The position numbers and the translations under genes are program-made. Under the pieces are notes generated by a model that was not told the DNA's origin, searched no databases, and worked only from the letters and a program-made list of their open reading frames with translations. This document shows, one piece after another, positions 16,527 to 21,323 of a stretch of 64,000 nt of DNA (within the stretch, counting starts at the first letter, position 1; the number at the start of each line of letters is the position of its first letter). The DNA is from Dehalococcoidia bacterium (GTDB lineage: Bacteria > Chloroflexota > Dehalococcoidia > Lucifugimonadales > JAGWBF01): the NCBI GenBank assembly GCA_021295955.1, contig JAGWBJ010000001.1, positions 124,001 to 188,000 on the forward strand. The letters are read 5' to 3'.

Positions 16527-17252
16527 CTACCTTCCCCGCTCGTCTCCCCACAGCAGGATGTGCAGGCGAGTGGTGAACCGGAACCCCCGTTCCACACACA
16601 GCTCGCTCAGCCACCCGCTCCGGCCCTGGAGTTCCCCCTTCGACGTCCCCTCGGGCATCAGGAGCACCCTGTTCCGACGGATGCCGTAGGCGCAAACCAG
16701 CGACTCCACCTCGTCCACGTCCTGACGGTCCACAACGACGAACTTGAAGAAGGCGGTGGGCAGCCCTGCGAATGCCGCCATGGCGGGGGCCACGTCCCGC
16801 CTGCGGGGGGAGTTTCCCGAGCTGCCCAGCTTGGGAGACACGTTCCACTGATCGACGGACCGGACCAGCGGCTCAAGGGGCGCGAGGGTGCCGTTGGTCT
16901 CCACCTCGAAGGAGAACCCGCGCCCCTTCAGTGAGTCCACCAGAGGGGCCAGAGCCTTCTGCTGGACCAACGGCTCCCCTCCGGTGACGACCAGGCGCCG
17001 GCAGCCATGTCCCTGCACCGCATCCATGACGTCTTCACGGCTGAGCTCGACCACCTCCTGCCGGTAGTCGTGGTTTCGCCAGTCCCAGGTGTACTTGGTG
17101 TCGCACCAGGTGCATATCAGGTTGCACAGGGCCAGCCGCAGGAACACCGACGGCGTTCCCAGGGAAGGGCCCTCCCCCTGCAGGGAGTAGAATATCTCCG
17201 GGTCCCCTCCAGGCCGTCGGCTCACCTTCAGGGTTCCAGCCGGAGAGCCCAT
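16527..17252 (-). CDS. queE: 7-carboxy-7-deazaguanine synthase
   Basis: Radical-SAM enzyme converting 6-carboxytetrahydropterin to 7-carboxy-7-deazaguanine in queuosine biosynthesis, 241 residues. EIFYSLQGEGPSLGTPSVF is the family N-terminus and the cluster motif is CNLICTWC (Cys43, Cys47, Cys50). VVTGGEPLVQQ follows. It starts two bases after the queC stop, last gene of the queF-D-C-E operon. Confidence 0.95.
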   Translation of the reverse strand: MGSPAGTLKVSRRPGGDPEIFYSLQGEGPSLGTPSVFLRLALCNLICTWCDTKYTWDWRNHDYRQEVVELSREDVMDAVQGHGCRRLVVTGGEPLVQQKALAPLVDSLKGRGFSFEVETNGTLAPLEPLVRSVDQWNVSPKLGSSGNSPRRRDVAPAMAAFAGLPTAFFKFVVVDRQDVDEVESLVCAYGIRRNRVLLMPEGTSKGELQGRSGWLSELCVERGFRFTTRLHILLWGDERGR

Positions 17253-17253
17253 C

Positions 17254-18012
17254 CTAGCCCATTCCCGGACGCGCCGGCAGGGGGTCAGGGTAGCCGGCCT
17301 GAGCGAATCCCCGGGCCCTCAGGACGCAGCTATCGCAGCGGCCGCAGGGCTCCGAGCCGTCCAGATAGCAGCTCCAGGTCCTGTCCAGGGGCGCCTTCAG
17401 GTCCATGCCCATCTTGACGATACCGGCCTTGGACAGGCGGATGATGGGCGTCTCGATCTCCATGGGCACGCCGTACTGGGTCCACAGCTTGCTGCCGTAC
17501 ATCAGCGTCTCCCGGACCTTCTCGTAGAACTCGGGCCTGCAGTCGGGATAGCCCGAGTAATCGATGGCGTTGGGGGCGATGTAGATGCGTGCGTCGATGT
17601 CGTCCGTCGGTATTCCTTCGCCCTCGATGGCGTCCAGGGCCATGCTCTCCAGGTACGCCGCGGCGAGGGTCAGGAAGAGGGTGTTGCGAAGGGGCACGTA
17701 GGTGTTGGGGATATCCCGGTCCTCCCCCGCCTCCCTAGAAGCTCCCGCCAAGCGGTCTGCGGGCACACGAAACCGTTGGGGGTTGGTCAGGGACGAGTAC
17801 CACGCCAGCCTGGCGTAGCCGGTTATGTCCACCACCTCGTGCCGGAGGCCCAGGGCCTCGGCCACCTGGGCGGCGCTGCGCACCTCGCGCCCGTGAGTCT
17901 GGCCGTACCGGAAGGTGAGGGCCACCAGCCGGTCTGCCTTGCTCCTGGCGTAGGCGGACACGGTGGTGGAGTCCAGCCCGCCTGATAGCAGGGTTACAGC
18001 CAGCCTCATCAT
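17254..18012 (-). CDS. queC: 7-cyano-7-deazaguanine synthase
   Basis: ATP-dependent enzyme forming preQ0, 252 residues. The PP-loop SGGLDS is at residues 10-15; the zinc-binding cysteines are in SCYLDGSEPCGRCDSC near the C-terminus. VPLRNTLFLTLAAAYLE is also typical. Sits between queD and queE. Confidence 0.96.
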   Translation of the reverse strand: MMRLAVTLLSGGLDSTTVSAYARSKADRLVALTFRYGQTHGREVRSAAQVAEALGLRHEVVDITGYARLAWYSSLTNPQRFRVPADRLAGASREAGEDRDIPNTYVPLRNTLFLTLAAAYLESMALDAIEGEGIPTDDIDARIYIAPNAIDYSGYPDCRPEFYEKVRETLMYGSKLWTQYGVPMEIETPIIRLSKAGIVKMGMDLKAPLDRTWSCYLDGSEPCGRCDSCVLRARGFAQAGYPDPLPARPGMG

Positions 18013-18028
18013 GCTGCCTCGCAGCGGC

Positions 18029-18454
18029 TCAGACGGCGCCGTATTCGGCGTACTGGCTCGGAGACTCCCACACGCGAACCATCGACGGCGCGACGCCGCA
18101 GAGCTCTTCGGCGGTCCGGTACAGCTCCCGGGCCATCACCTCGGCCGAGGGGTTGGCGTCGGGGAACACGAAGACGCGGCTGCCCTCAACCCCGCGGAGG
18201 GCGGCCAGCATCTCCTCGTCGCGGCCGCTCACCAGGAAGGCGTGGTCCCAGTGCTCGTCGATCCAGCCGCCCACCTTGTCCTTGACGTCGGTGAAGTCCA
18301 CGACGAAACCGATGCTATTGAGCGCCTCGGAAGCCATCCATATCTCGGCGCGGTAGGTATGCCCGTGGGGGTGGACGCACTTGCCCTGGTGCCCCAGGAG
18401 CCTGTGTCCGCTGGCGAAGGACAGCTCGATACGCACCTGGTAGCGGTCTCCCAC
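18029..18454 (-). CDS. queD: 6-carboxytetrahydropterin synthase
   Basis: Makes 6-carboxytetrahydropterin from dihydroneopterin triphosphate, 141 residues. Zinc and catalytic residues are visible in FASGHRLLGHQGKCVHPHGH (His17, Cys26, His30, His32), and the later segment DHAFLV supplies a further catalytic His/Asp. Three bases separate it from queF. Confidence 0.95.
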   Translation of the reverse strand: MGDRYQVRIELSFASGHRLLGHQGKCVHPHGHTYRAEIWMASEALNSIGFVVDFTDVKDKVGGWIDEHWDHAFLVSGRDEEMLAALRGVEGSRVFVFPDANPSAEVMARELYRTAEELCGVAPSMVRVWESPSQYAEYGAV

Positions 18455-18457
18455 GGC

Positions 18458-18898
18458 TCAACCCCCAAGGGCCCGGTCGCGGCGGCCGTGCTCCACCGAC
18501 ACCGAGGTGTGTATGCCTCCCCGGACCTTGTAGTCCAGGGTCACCTTCATCCACCGGGGGCCGGATAGCTTAACCAGGTCTTGGAGGATGCGGGCCGCCG
18601 CGTGCTCCTGGACGATGCCCACGTCGCGGTAGGACAGCAGGTAATACTTCAGGGACTTGAGCTCTATGCACCGGCGGTCCGGCACGTAGGCGACCGTCAG
18701 GGCGCCGTAGTCGGGCAGCCCGGTCCAGGGGCACAGGGCCGTGAACTCGTCGGTGTCTATGGCGATCTCCTGGGGTTGCTCCGGGTACTCGTAGTCGAAG
18801 GTCAGGAGGCACTGCGGCTCCAGGGAGTCCTCGTCCTTGGCCGGCAGCCGCCGGTCCAAGGCCAGGTACTGCTCTCCCAGGGAAACGGTGGTCGCCAT
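18458..18898 (-). CDS. queF: NADPH-dependent 7-cyano-7-deazaguanine reductase (short QueF)
   Basis: Reduces preQ0 to preQ1, 146 residues, the short single-domain form. The catalytic cysteine is Cys56 in FTALCPWTGLPDYG and the QueF motif is ELKSLKYYLLSYRDVGI. It leads the que operon and has its own promoter about 60 bases upstream. The leader was checked for a preQ1 riboswitch and none was recognised. The operon contains no GTP cyclohydrolase gene. Confidence 0.95.
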   Translation of the reverse strand: MATTVSLGEQYLALDRRLPAKDEDSLEPQCLLTFDYEYPEQPQEIAIDTDEFTALCPWTGLPDYGALTVAYVPDRRCIELKSLKYYLLSYRDVGIVQEHAAARILQDLVKLSGPRWMKVTLDYKVRGGIHTSVSVEHGRRDRALGG

Positions 18899-18988: not shown

Positions 18989-19030
18989 AACAACACGCGA
19001 CAAGACGAGCGCCGACACCGCCAGCCCATC

Positions 19031-19059
19031 TTGTAACCACTGCCCGTGTGGAGTAGACT
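19031..19059 (+). promoter_or_regulatory. Predicted promoter of the selenoprotein redox operon
   Basis: TTGTAA at 19031-19036, exactly 17 bases, then TAGACT at 19054-19059. Transcription would start near 19066, only a few bases before the first ATG candidates (19073, 19085, 19091), so the leader would be very short or absent. Confidence 0.5.
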
Positions 19060-19072
19060 GGTAGGCAGTCGC

Positions 19073-19483
19073 ATGATAGACGACATGCCCATGGAAGCGT
19101 CCAAATCCCCATCCAGCGGCGCTGGGACAGTTGGGTACCCGGATGGGCCGGCGAACTTGGCCCAGGTGCACGACCTGTTCAAGGGCGCGCTGGCCGGTGA
19201 GCCGCGGCTCAAGATGCTGCGCGGCTTCAAGCTGGACTTCTCCGGCAACTCCGACTTCCACAAGGTGTACTTCTCGGCCCGGTGCGACTGCGGTACGGCA
19301 GCCCTGCTCAGCGTGGAGGTGGACCGTGCCAAGAGCCTGCTCCAGGTCGAAGAGGCCCTCCCGGAGTTGACGGACCACCTTAAGGGGAAGGTCGGCCAGT
19401 TCCAGGCCATGTCCTGCGAGATGCACTCGATGATGAGGACCGGCAATAGGGAGGCCAAGCCCGGGATGGGAGCCGGCGGATGA
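19073..19483 (+). CDS. Unknown protein, first gene of the selenoprotein redox operon
   Basis: About 136 residues, soluble, not recognised. After a Ser/Pro-rich N-terminus the conserved-looking part runs from NLAQVHDLFKGALAG through a beta-rich stretch to ARCDCGTAALLSVEVD and ends near MSCEMHSMMR. It has three cysteines: a Cys-x-Cys pair and a single Cys about 45 residues later, close to a His-Met-rich segment, so a metal or redox role is possible. Its stop overlaps the next ATG as ATGA, so it is translationally coupled to the FTR-like gene. The start is uncertain among ATGs at 19073, 19085 and 19091; an ATG at 19046 lies upstream of the predicted transcription start. Function unknown. Confidence 0.75.
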   Translation: MIDDMPMEASKSPSSGAGTVGYPDGPANLAQVHDLFKGALAGEPRLKMLRGFKLDFSGNSDFHKVYFSARCDCGTAALLSVEVDRAKSLLQVEEALPELTDHLKGKVGQFQAMSCEMHSMMRTGNREAKPGMGAGG

Positions 19484-19914
19484 CGCGAAAGAAGCTGAGC
19501 TACGAGAAGGCCCTGGAAGGCACCGTAAAGTTCTCCGAGAGGTACGTAGAGCGGGGCGAGTACGAGTTCTTCCCGGAAGCCGAGGTGGTCAAGGTCGTCC
19601 AGGAGGGCCTGGCCAAAAACCAGGTGGACCACGGCTACCGGTACTGCCCTTGAATGCCCCTGAGCGGCGATCCCGTGGAGGATCGCAAGAAGATCTGCCC
19701 CTGCGACAGGCACCACGAGGACATACAGAGGGACGGCTTCTGCATTTGAATGTTCTTTGTCAGCGAGGAGTTCCTTCGCAAGTACGAAGAGGGTGAAGAG
19801 GCAGTCCAGACCATCGACGAGGCGGTCAAGCCCGGCGAGGGCCTGTTCGACCAGGAGTACGAGTCCAAGGCCGACCGTAAGGGCCGGCAAAGATCACAAG
19901 AGGGAGAAGCCTGA
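19480..19914 (+). CDS. Ferredoxin:thioredoxin reductase-like catalytic subunit, selenoprotein with two in-frame TGA (Sec) codons
   Basis: Reading TGA at 19651-19653 and 19747-19749 as selenocysteine gives one 144-residue protein. Its core is HGYRYCPU (Cys56, Sec58), ICPCDRHH (Cys73, Cys75) and DGFCIU (Cys88, Sec90), the FTR catalytic pattern CPC...CPC...CHC. In spinach FTR the first Cys of motif 1, both of motif 2 and the first of motif 3 bind the [4Fe-4S] cluster, while the second Cys of motifs 1 and 3 form the active disulfide. Here all four ligands remain Cys and both disulfide positions are Sec. A lysine-rich helix precedes the core and an acidic tail follows it. The ATG overlaps the upstream stop; the terminal TGA at 19912 overlaps the glutaredoxin ATG. 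With ordinary decoding the gene would fall into pieces of 57, 31 and 54 residues. Confidence 0.88.
19667..19686 (+). promoter_or_regulatory. Predicted bacterial SECIS hairpin for the first FTR Sec codon
   Basis: Perfect 7-bp stem GCGATCC/GGATCGC closing the loop CGTGGA. The G at loop position two is 21 bases after the TGA at 19651-19653. Known bacterial SECIS elements have a G among the first two loop bases, about 16-37 bases after the UGA, so this fits. Confidence 0.75.
19771..19793 (+). promoter_or_regulatory. Weaker SECIS candidate for the second FTR Sec codon
   Basis: Stem CTTCG/CGAAG (19774-19778 with 19785-19789) around the loop CAAGTA, extendable by three pairs if A19790 is bulged. 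The loop begins 30 bases after the TGA at 19747-19749. Its G is not among the first two loop bases, so it departs from the consensus and an alternative fold may be used. Confidence 0.4.
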
Positions 19915-20153
19915 TGGACGACATCATCGTCTACACATCCGACGGTTGAGGCCCCTGCCATATGGTGAAAGTGTACCTTTCACGCAAGGGAATACCGTTC
20001 ATCGAGAAGAACATCTCGCAGGACGAAGAGGCGCGCAACAACCTCCTGGCCATGGGGCACCGGAGCACGCCCGTGACCACCATGAAGGACCAGAAGGTGG
20101 TGGGATACAGCCCGCCCAAGCTGGACGCGGCGCTCCAGGCGGCCGGGTTCTGA
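19914..20153 (+). CDS. Glutaredoxin-like selenoprotein with a UGPC active site
   Basis: A 79-residue glutaredoxin/NrdH-type thioredoxin-fold protein. It begins MDDIIVYTSDG, then an in-frame TGA at 19947-19949 (Sec12), then GPCHMVKVYL. The redox motif C-x-x-C is therefore U-G-P-C, with Sec at the nucleophilic first position. The cis-proline segment STPVTTM and the C-terminal VVGYSPPKLDAAL complete the fold. If TGA were a stop, only an 11-residue peptide would be made and the downstream ATG at 19962 would give a protein lacking the active site. The start overlaps the FTR stop (TGATG). Likely a substrate or partner of the diselenide FTR; that partnership is inferred from the operon. Confidence 0.9.
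19965..19983 (+). promoter_or_regulatory. Predicted bacterial SECIS hairpin for the glutaredoxin Sec codon
   Basis: Perfect 7-bp stem GTGAAAG/CTTTCAC closing the loop TGTAC. The G is the second loop base and lies 24 bases from the TGA at 19947-19949, inside the known spacing range for bacterial SECIS elements. Confidence 0.78.
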
Positions 20154-20288
20154 CGGCCCGCCAGCCCTTTCCCCTCATTACGCCGCGCCTTCCATGAACG
20201 CCCAGCCTCGAGCCGTCCTGTCCGGCAAGGTCCGCCCTGACCGCAACGCATGGCCTTGCCTCCCCATGCCCGACGGGAGCGTGGGCCG

Positions 20289-21323
20289 TTGAAGGATGTC
20301 CTGGTCACCGGCGGCGCCGGCTTCCTGGGCATGGAACTGGTGCGAAGCCTGGCGGCGTCGGGCCTCAGGCCAAGGGTCCTGGACCTCAACGACCCCAACG
20401 ACCCTCGCGTCGACGACAGCATCGATTTCACTCGAGGGGACGTCCGAGACGCGTCCACGGTGTCCGAGATGACCCGCGGCGTGGACACCGTGTTCCATCT
20501 CGCCGCTGCCGTGCTGCCCACCCGGGGCAAGGCCAACTACACCTCCATCAACACCGGGGGGACGCGCAACGTCCTTCGGGCCTGCATGGACCACGGCGTC
20601 CAGCACGTGGTGCACATCTCGACCAGCGCCATCTACGGCATCCCCAAGGCGCTGCCCGTCACAGAGGAGACCGAGCTGCGGCCCATGGGCTACTACGGCA
20701 ACGCCAAGCACGAGGGCGAGCTGGAGGTGCATAAGGCCCGGGAGCAGGGCTTGAAGGTGAGCATCCTGCGACCCCGCACCATCATAGGCACCGAGCGGCT
20801 GGGCATCTTCCACATCCTGTTCGACTGGATCAAGGCCGGCAAGCGCATTCCCATCATCGGCTCCGGCGACAACCTGTTCCAGTTCATCAGTGCCAGGGAC
20901 GTCGTCTCGGCGTCCATCCTGGCCGCCGAAAAGCAGGTCGACGACGACTTCAACATCGGCGCAGAAGAGTTCTCCACGGTCCGGGACGACCTGGAGTCCC
21001 TGGTGCGCCACGCCGGATCGGGCTCCAGGGTCGTGTCCATCCCCGCGCTTATGGCCAAGGCGCCCCTGCAGGTGCTGGACCTGATGAGACTCTCCCCCCT
21101 GATGGACTGGCAGTACAAGGTGGCCGACAAGCCCTTCTACTTCGACATCGGCAAGGCCAAACGGGAGCTCGGCTGGCAGCCCCAGGACAGCAACGCCGGC
21201 ATGTTCATCGACTCGTACGACTGGTACGTACGAGAGTATACTGACACCGCCTCGGCATACGGGTCCACCCACAGGCAGGCGGTCCGCCAGCGGGCCCTCA
21301 GGCTCCTGAGAAAGGTCTTCTGA
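20289..21323 (+). CDS. NAD-dependent epimerase/dehydratase (extended SDR)
   Basis: 344-residue nucleotide-sugar SDR. NAD-binding GGAGFLG is near residue 9, FHLAAAV follows, the catalytic Ser-Tyr-Lys appear as STSAIYG and YYGNAK, and RPRTIIG is typical of the family. The TTG start at 20289 gives MKDVLVTGGAGFLG and has GGGAG nine bases upstream; an ATG at 20250 is in frame but lacks a ribosome site. A divergent C-terminal basic tail ends LRLLRKVF. It is followed after seven bases by a sugar transferase, so it probably acts in envelope glycan synthesis. The exact sugar substrate is unknown. Confidence 0.87.
   Translation: MKDVLVTGGAGFLGMELVRSLAASGLRPRVLDLNDPNDPRVDDSIDFTRGDVRDASTVSEMTRGVDTVFHLAAAVLPTRGKANYTSINTGGTRNVLRACMDHGVQHVVHISTSAIYGIPKALPVTEETELRPMGYYGNAKHEGELEVHKAREQGLKVSILRPRTIIGTERLGIFHILFDWIKAGKRIPIIGSGDNLFQFISARDVVSASILAAEKQVDDDFNIGAEEFSTVRDDLESLVRHAGSGSRVVSIPALMAKAPLQVLDLMRLSPLMDWQYKVADKPFYFDIGKAKRELGWQPQDSNAGMFIDSYDWYVREYTDTASAYGSTHRQAVRQRALRLLRKVF

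What the first reader, a model, noticed from the sequence alone, without database searches (positions are those of the whole stretch)
19480..19914. Ferredoxin:thioredoxin reductase-like selenoprotein with a predicted active-site diselenide
Seen: two in-frame TGA codons (codons 58 and 90) occupy the second Cys positions of FTR motifs 1 and 3 (CPU...CPC...CIU), while Cys56, Cys73, Cys75 and Cys88 remain. Known: in plant FTR those two positions form the redox disulfide and the other four cysteines bind the [4Fe-4S] cluster. Inferred: both redox thiols are replaced by Sec, so the enzyme would cycle through a cluster-linked diselenide. I know of no described FTR of this kind.
Basis: partly seen in the sequence, partly recalled or inferred. 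Interest (0 to 1): 0.96.

Follow-up and report, generated by a model that had tools for sequence, protein, structure and literature searches.

The report
Double-selenium reductase paired with selenium glutaredoxin
A bacterium that its relatives place in the Dehalococcoidia (a group that includes the ocean's SAR202 bacteria) encodes a small iron-sulfur enzyme whose two reactive sulfur sites are both replaced by selenium, a kind first reported in 2008, and here it sits directly beside a selenium-containing glutaredoxin that is probably its partner.

Summary
In detail: window 19480-19914 is an FTR-beta-like gene with in-frame TGA at codons 58 and 90, at the two redox-cysteine positions. The TGAs look like real Sec codons. 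All 59 homologues compared have TGA at both sites while their terminal stops vary; the sequence beyond the TGAs is under strong purifying selection; each TGA is followed by a conserved hairpin; and the genome has selA, selB, selC and selD.

The novelty claim is wrong. Zhang and Gladyshev (2008) reported an FTR with Sec at exactly these two positions, and NCBIfam has a model for it (NF041072, "FtrB family double-selenoprotein"), which this protein matches well above cut-off.

Not found described in the papers I could search: (i) the gene overlaps a downstream gene for a Sec glutaredoxin (UGPC), present in 44 of 59 loci and Sec in all 44; (ii) all 58 named loci found are Chloroflexota; (iii) 57 of 57 single-Sec FTR relatives examined carry Sec only at the motif-3 (cluster-proximal) site, and Sec at motif 1 appears once on the tree.

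Best reading: a ferredoxin disulfide reductase that uses a selenium pair to reduce a Sec glutaredoxin, as the Grx/FDR fusion 7PWE suggests. The chemistry is untested.

The parts
19091..19483 (+). Upstream small protein (start uncertain: ATG at 19073, 19085 or 19091), conserved C-x-C-G...C-x-x-H; its stop overlaps the FTR start (ATGA)
   Evidence: Homologous ORF upstream of FTR in 30 of 59 loci by a CxCG pattern; C64, C66, C108, H111 invariant in 24 aligned, numbered from window 19094; the window protein has no Pfam or NCBIfam match and the profile no PDB match; AlphaFold model pLDDT 85.7 without clear PDB neighbour
19480..19914 (+). FTR-catalytic-chain-like double selenoprotein (FtrB double-U)
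   Evidence: PF02943 84.1 bits, NF041072 225.7 bits
19651..19653 (+). TGA codon 58, Sec, motif-1 second position (plant FTR Cys57 equivalent; numbering recalled)
   Evidence: TGA in 59 of 59; profile alignment to 1DJ7/4TPU
19667..19686 (+). bSECIS-like hairpin for codon 58: 7-bp stem, 6-nt loop CGTGGA, beginning 16 nt after the T of the TGA
   Evidence: 96.6% of pair cells formed in 59 sequences versus 59.6% in codon redraws, 0 of 200 redraws reach it
19747..19749 (+). TGA codon 90, Sec, motif-3 second position (plant FTR Cys87 equivalent; numbering recalled)
   Evidence: TGA in 59 of 59
19763..19779 (+). bSECIS-like hairpin for codon 90: 7-bp stem (6 of 7 pairs in the window), loop GTT
   Evidence: 99.0% of pair cells formed in 59 sequences versus 61.8% in redraws, 0 of 200
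19914..20153 (+). Glutaredoxin (NrdH-like) selenoprotein, UGPC; start overlaps the FTR stop (TGATG)
   Evidence: PF00462 48.5 bits with C for Sec; Sec-Grx with this motif in 44 of 59 loci, TGA in 44 of 44; without read-through only a 63-aa ORF from 19962 is open
19947..19949 (+). TGA codon 12 of the glutaredoxin, Sec of UGPC
19965..19983 (+). bSECIS-like hairpin of the glutaredoxin: 7-bp stem, loop TGTAC
   Evidence: 99.3% of pair cells formed in 43 sequences versus 57.4% in redraws, 0 of 200

Best explanation
The gene encodes a stand-alone ferredoxin-dependent disulfide reductase of the FTR catalytic-chain family. Cys56, Cys73, Cys75 and Cys88 would hold a [4Fe-4S] cluster and Sec58/Sec90 would be the redox pair. 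Reduced ferredoxin would pass electrons through the cluster. Sec90 would interact with the cluster while Sec58 attacks the oxidised partner, and the two would close a diselenide after turnover. The most likely partner is the glutaredoxin with a Sec-x-x-Cys site encoded immediately downstream. Its final targets (ribonucleotide reductase, arsenate reductase or others) are unknown. SHOWN: family, Sec codons, Sec machinery genes, hairpins, overlapping genes and their conservation. INFERRED: cluster ligation, diselenide, order of attack, glutaredoxin as substrate, ferredoxin as donor.
For: Family match and PDB profile matches to 4TPU (M. acetivorans ferredoxin-dependent disulfide reductase), 7PWE and plant/cyanobacterial FTR chains, aligning the CPC/CPC/CxC motifs. 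7PWE is titled a glutaredoxin/ferredoxin disulfide reductase fusion protein from Desulfotalea psychrophila (that the fusion is natural is my reading). TGA in 59 of 59 at both sites, purifying selection beyond them, variable terminal stops. Hairpins after all three TGAs. tRNA-Sec(TCA), SelB 364.5 bits, SelA 530.5 bits, SelD 379.6 bits with one TGA. Sec-Grx near the FTR in 44 of 59 loci. Of 80 genomes searched (26 double-Sec, 20 single-Sec, 14 Cys-FTR, 20 of the same order without a match), the Sec-Grx at over 110 bits occurs in 11, all double-Sec genomes and all next to that FTR; 0 of the 54 others.
Against: 15 of 59 double-Sec loci have no such glutaredoxin in the fetched DNA, and 15 of 26 double-Sec genomes lack it at over 110 bits (4 of these 15 have weaker matches, best 46-63 bits), so the enzyme must have another partner there. 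Weaker relatives of the glutaredoxin (best 38-90 bits, several with TGA) occur in 19 of the 54 genomes without the double-Sec FTR, so Sec glutaredoxins as such are not tied to it. No FTR variable chain in the own genome. A thioredoxin reductase homologue over its cut-off is present there, so the enzyme is not the only disulfide-reducing route. The structure model was poor (mean pLDDT 61.6; best Foldseek E 4.3e-3), so geometry around the Sec pair was not tested. The codon-58 hairpin is complete in only 45 of 59, and a stricter null gave only modest energy z-scores.
Confidence: 0.72

Rival explanations
1. Same enzyme, but the physiological substrate is thioredoxin (classical FTR role), and the adjacent Sec-glutaredoxin is only co-regulated.
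For: 15 of 26 double-Sec genomes lack the Sec-Grx at over 110 bits; plant and cyanobacterial FTRs reduce thioredoxins (established knowledge; PDB complexes with thioredoxins).
Against: Gene overlap in the window; Sec-Grx near the FTR in 44 of 59 loci and, at over 110 bits, in none of the 54 genomes without this FTR among 80 searched; Grx/FDR fusion 7PWE; no FTR variable chain in the own genome.
Confidence: 0.2
2. The TGAs are read by another route (Trp or other recoding) or are pseudogene or sequencing damage.
For: The gene comes from a draft assembly (87.68% complete, 7.04% contamination).
Against: 59 of 59 TGA at both sites, including two records not titled MAG (L135, L140), with TGA also the terminal stop of 13 of 59; sel genes; hairpins; the positions align with cysteines.
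Confidence: 0.02
3. The cluster or the two Sec residues serve another chemistry (for example metal or oxyanion reduction, or arsenate detoxification) rather than thiol-disulfide exchange.
For: In two related loci (L080, L088) the module is followed by MIP channel and arsenate-reductase-like genes; the L088 pair was scanned (MIP over cut-off, arsenate reductase 85.2 bits, under its cut-off of 215), the L080 pair judged by place and opening residues only.
Against: That pair was not seen in the other 18 of 20 loci listed; the FTR motifs are intact.
Confidence: 0.06

Closest known systems
FtrB family double-selenoprotein, NCBIfam NF041072; GOS read JCVI_READ_1093012271142 in Zhang and Gladyshev 2008 (PMC2398784)
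   Same: FTR catalytic chain with Sec at both redox-active positions; this protein scores 225.7 bits against a cut-off of 160. That the GOS read falls in NF041072 was not tested; the 2026 review files the family under that model.
   Different: The passages that I read do not mention a Sec-glutaredoxin neighbour, the upstream protein or the host of the FTR.
Ferredoxin-dependent disulfide reductase of Methanosarcina (PDB 4TPU)
   Same: Same catalytic family and motifs. M. barkeri FDR is recalled to feed an NrdH-type glutaredoxin (Wei 2015; title seen in a reference list; paper not held).
   Different: Cys, not Sec; 4TPU is labelled Rubredoxin in the PDB and the Methanosarcina type carries a rubredoxin domain (recalled), absent here.
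Glutaredoxin/ferredoxin disulfide reductase fusion of Desulfotalea psychrophila (PDB 7PWE)
   Same: Couples a glutaredoxin to an FTR-like domain.
   Different: One fused chain with Cys in the aligned motifs there; two overlapping genes with three Sec here.
Plant/cyanobacterial FTR (1DJ7, 2PU9)
   Same: CPC/CPC/CxC motifs with the two second-position cysteines as redox pair (recalled; PMC2398784 says the same of its GOS read).
   Different: Heterodimer with variable chain, Cys, reduces thioredoxins (recalled); no variable chain in the own genome.

Membership tests
NF041072 FtrB double-selenoprotein | Profile score over curated cut-off 160 | tested here: met
   225.7 bits
NF041072 FtrB double-selenoprotein | Sec codons at both CxU redox positions | tested here: met
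NF041072 FtrB double-selenoprotein | Host with Sec machinery selA, selB, selC, selD | tested here: met
Canonical FTR (plant/cyanobacterial) | Catalytic-chain family and motifs | tested here: met
   PF02943 84.1 bits; 1DJ7 match
Canonical FTR (plant/cyanobacterial) | Variable (alpha) chain PF02941 | tested here: not met
   0 of 1 genome, which is 87.68% complete; the control rang in Synechococcus elongatus
Canonical FTR (plant/cyanobacterial) | Reduces thioredoxin with ferredoxin electrons | not testable with these tools
   needs enzyme
Ferredoxin disulfide reductase with glutaredoxin partner | Glutaredoxin fused or adjacent | tested here: met
   overlapping gene in the window; near the FTR in 44 of 59 loci
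Ferredoxin disulfide reductase, Methanosarcina type | C-terminal rubredoxin domain | tested here: not met
   only FeThRed_B found in the window protein
Bacterial selenoprotein gene | Hairpin shortly after each UGA | tested here: met
   but no Rfam family matched
Bacterial selenoprotein gene | Sec in the protein | not testable with these tools
   needs mass spectrometry or 75Se

The most novel reading that the evidence does not exclude
An all-selenium, ferredoxin-driven redox relay: a double-Sec FTR passes electrons from a [4Fe-4S] cluster, with the motif-3 selenolate bound to or next to the cluster, through a diselenide to a dedicated Sec-glutaredoxin. The motif-3, cluster-proximal position is the one where selenium is first and repeatedly favoured: 57 of 57 single-Sec relatives examined have it there and not at motif 1.
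Probability: 0.45. Interest if true: 0.7.

Novelty: new member of a known kind. Interest (0 to 1): 0.42.

Why it matters
The double-Sec enzyme itself was reported in 2008, so its existence is not news. What it gains here is a phylogenetic home (Chloroflexota, Dehalococcoidia/SAR202), a probable dedicated partner that is also a selenoprotein, a third unknown gene, and a likely evolutionary order (Sec at the cluster-proximal site in every Sec-FTR seen, at the partner-facing site in one clade). That makes the question of why selenium is used beside an iron-sulfur cluster directly testable by single Cys-for-Sec swaps in one small laboratory-expressed system.

Tried and rejected
Tried: single-protein scans of genome contigs and viral contigs with the Cys-for-Sec translation found nothing confirmed; patterns spelling Cys cannot match TGA. 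A second genome scan with an alignment carrying X at the Sec positions gave 58 loci. Rfam search of 19000-20400 gave no match. AlphaFold of the FTR was low-confidence, so no distances are claimed; its Foldseek matches were nevertheless FTR/FDR entries in ranks 1-12 of 15, none at E <= 0.001. The upstream protein gave a confident model but no usable PDB neighbour (best E 0.14); four Pfam families matched one of 24 members each, E 0.02 or weaker. Literature searches for SAR202 plus selenoprotein (0 papers), double-selenoprotein (0), Desulfotalea plus disulfide reductase plus glutaredoxin (0), Cys57 plus Cys87 (0) and Methanosarcina FDR terms (0) gave nothing. Looking for a Sec-MsrA as target of the Sec-Grx: no MsrA match in the own genome, and none of the 12 matches in 12 of 26 genomes holds a TGA. 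PADLOC gave nothing for the FTR and upstream protein.

Rows dropped: my first motif pattern missed L146 and L147; they were inspected and included from then on. The glutaredoxin hairpin count used 43 of 44 (the one on the opposite strand left out). The codon comparison upstream of codon 58 used 58 of 59. In the single-Sec hairpin look, 48 of 49 CHU rows gave a weaker stem (85.7% paired) and 8 of 8 CYU rows none convincing (66.1%), both without a null: the single-Sec FTRs lack the hairpin support that the double-Sec ones have.

Full report
OBSERVATION. Window 19480-19914 reads as a 144-residue protein with TGA at codons 58 (19651-19653) and 90 (19747-19749) in CPU...CPC...CIU. With C for Sec it matches PF02943 at 84.1 bits and NCBIfam NF041072, "FtrB family double-selenoprotein", at 225.7 bits against a cut-off of 160.

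SEC CODONS ARE REAL. An alignment with X at the Sec positions, searched with patterns that do not fix those two residues (ICPC[DE]RHH and DGFCIxMF), gave 58 loci. With the window, codon 58 is TGA in 59 of 59 and codon 90 in 59 of 59, while the terminal stop is TAG 28, TAA 18, TGA 13. Third-position differences far exceed first and second positions between and after the TGAs (0.453 versus 0.081/0.044; 0.271 versus 0.059/0.066). Two of the 58 records, L135 and L140, are not titled MAG. In a sample of 393 genomes of the class, 26 have a match over the NF041072 cut-off and all 26 show exactly two TGAs. These 26 overlap in part with the 58 named loci (for example L109 and G298 share a contig length), so the two sets are not independent.

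SEC MACHINERY. In the own genome: tRNA-Sec with anticodon TCA, SelB 364.5 bits, SelA 530.5 bits, SelD 379.6 bits, itself with one TGA. SelB is over its cut-off in 22 of 26 double-Sec genomes, 18 of 20 single-Sec genomes and 9 of 19 Cys-FTR genomes (my sorting). SelA is over its cut-off in 23 of 26 double-Sec genomes. The four double-Sec genomes without SelB over cut-off are 63-87% complete.

HAIRPINS. After each of the three TGAs of the module lies a 7-bp stem beginning 16-18 nt after the T of the TGA: codon 58, 96.6% of pair cells formed (59 sequences; all seven pairs in 45); codon 90, 99.0% (55 of 59 complete); glutaredoxin, 99.3% (43 sequences; 41 complete). Redrawing synonymous codons from the rest of the same genes gives 59.6%, 61.8% and 57.4%, and 0 of 200 redraws reach the observed value at each site, even with the best stem chosen anew in each redraw. 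An earlier, harder null that drew codons from these very sites gave mean energy z-scores of only -0.84, -1.09 and -0.77. Loops mostly hold GU (for codon 58, 7 of 59 have TGATGA without it), as in known bacterial SECIS loops (recalled). Rfam had no match.

THE MODULE. The FTR start overlaps the stop of an upstream small protein (ATGA) and its stop overlaps the start of a downstream glutaredoxin (TGATG). The glutaredoxin (PF00462 48.5 bits; PDB matches are glutaredoxins, NrdH and two entries named thioredoxin) has UGPC and scores under the cut-off of every NCBIfam model it hit. Allowing C or U, 44 of 59 loci have it and all 44 are TGA; 43 lie on the same strand and L109 has it divergent upstream. 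A glutaredoxin profile found none in the other 15 loci, some of which have little DNA downstream.

I then searched 80 genomes: 26 double-Sec, 20 single-Sec, 14 Cys-FTR, and 20 of the same order without an FTR match. The Sec-Grx at over 110 bits occurs in 11, all double-Sec and all beside the FTR; none of the other 54 has it; 15 double-Sec genomes lack it at that level. Within the window's order this is 10 of 10 against 0 of 20. Weaker relatives (best 38-90 bits, several with TGA) occur in 19 of the 54 and in 4 of the 15, so Sec glutaredoxins as such are wider than this pairing.

The upstream protein occurs in 30 of 59 loci by pattern and has invariant C64, C66, C108 and H111 in 24 aligned. The window protein has no Pfam or NCBIfam match, its profile no PDB sequence match, and its confident fold no clear PDB neighbour. 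A metal site is a guess from the residues.

DISTRIBUTION. All 58 titles name Chloroflexota, Chloroflexi, Dehalococcoidia or SAR202; more divergent members could escape the two patterns. A sample of 400 genomes of the phylum had only the window's own genome at E <= 1e-30.

SINGLE-SEC RELATIVES. One search printed 57 relatives with one TGA (its list was cut). All 57 were fetched and all have Sec at the motif-3 second position, none at motif 1: CHU 49, CYU 8. All 20 Cys relatives fetched have Cys at both positions. In a tree of 103 rows the double-Sec group is one clade (SH-aLRT 97), motif-1 Sec needs one change and motif-3 Sec four; the tree has few columns and long branches, so the number four is soft. 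Three single-Sec proteins scanned score 43.3-55.5 bits with NF041072, under its cut-off, and hit no other FTR model. Their hairpin support is weak.

HOW IT PROBABLY WORKS. By homology (PDB 4TPU, 7PWE, 1DJ7), ferredoxin reduces a 4Fe-4S cluster held by Cys56, 73, 75 and 88. Sec90 would sit at the cluster and Sec58 would attack the partner (mechanism of plant FTR recalled). 7PWE, titled a glutaredoxin/ferredoxin disulfide reductase fusion protein, makes the glutaredoxin the best partner candidate. No FTR variable chain was found in the genome, so it is probably not the plant-type heterodimer. A thioredoxin reductase homologue is present, so this is an additional route.

NOVELTY. Zhang and Gladyshev 2008 (PMC2398784; passages read) report two FTR selenoproteins, one with two Sec "exactly corresponding to the two redox-active Cys residues". 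A 2022 review (PMC9312934; passages) and a 2026 review (PMC13188914; passages, outline and section 9) list the family, the latter with 2 Sec. Section 9 of the 2026 review names several selenoprotein operons but not FTR-Grx. My searches (listings only beyond the papers named) showed no paper on an FTR-Grx selenoprotein pair, and the library lacks most subscription journals. Sec-glutaredoxins as such are known.

VERDICT. True observation, sound mapping to the redox positions, but a known kind. The partner gene and the single-Sec pattern are the useful additions.

Noticed in passing
L040-L059 and L162-L198 (single-TGA FTRs): Two other FTR groups, one with a rubredoxin-like C-terminus (CYU; by eye and weak rubrerythrin-model matches) and one without (CHU), carry a single Sec at motif 3 in 57 of 57; the three scanned hit no FTR model over cut-off.
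   Followed up: partly
window 19091-19483: Uncharacterised small protein with CxCG...CxxH, conserved upstream of the FTR in 30 of 59 loci; no family found.
   Followed up: partly
window 16527-18898, - strand: Queuosine precursor genes in a row: QueE-like and QueD-like (under model cut-offs), QueC and QueF (over cut-off).
   Followed up: partly
L088 5809-6899; L080 at the matching place: The FTR-Grx pair is followed by a MIP channel (over cut-off) and an arsenate-reductase-like gene (under cut-off) (for L088; L080 by eye), which hints at one possible target of the glutaredoxin in that lineage.
   Followed up: partly
L079 (G113:C8): A Cys FTR-like domain seems fused to a YedF/TusA-like sulfurtransferase domain (TIGR03527 22.2 bits, below cut-off 110).
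   Followed up: no
L091, L096, L097, L098: Double-Sec FTRs without the Sec-Grx lie near genes that look like cytochrome c, Rieske and cytochrome b genes (by eye).
   Followed up: no
L103 (own genome, C6:52470-53390): The genome's SelD is itself a selenoprotein candidate with one in-frame TGA.
   Followed up: no
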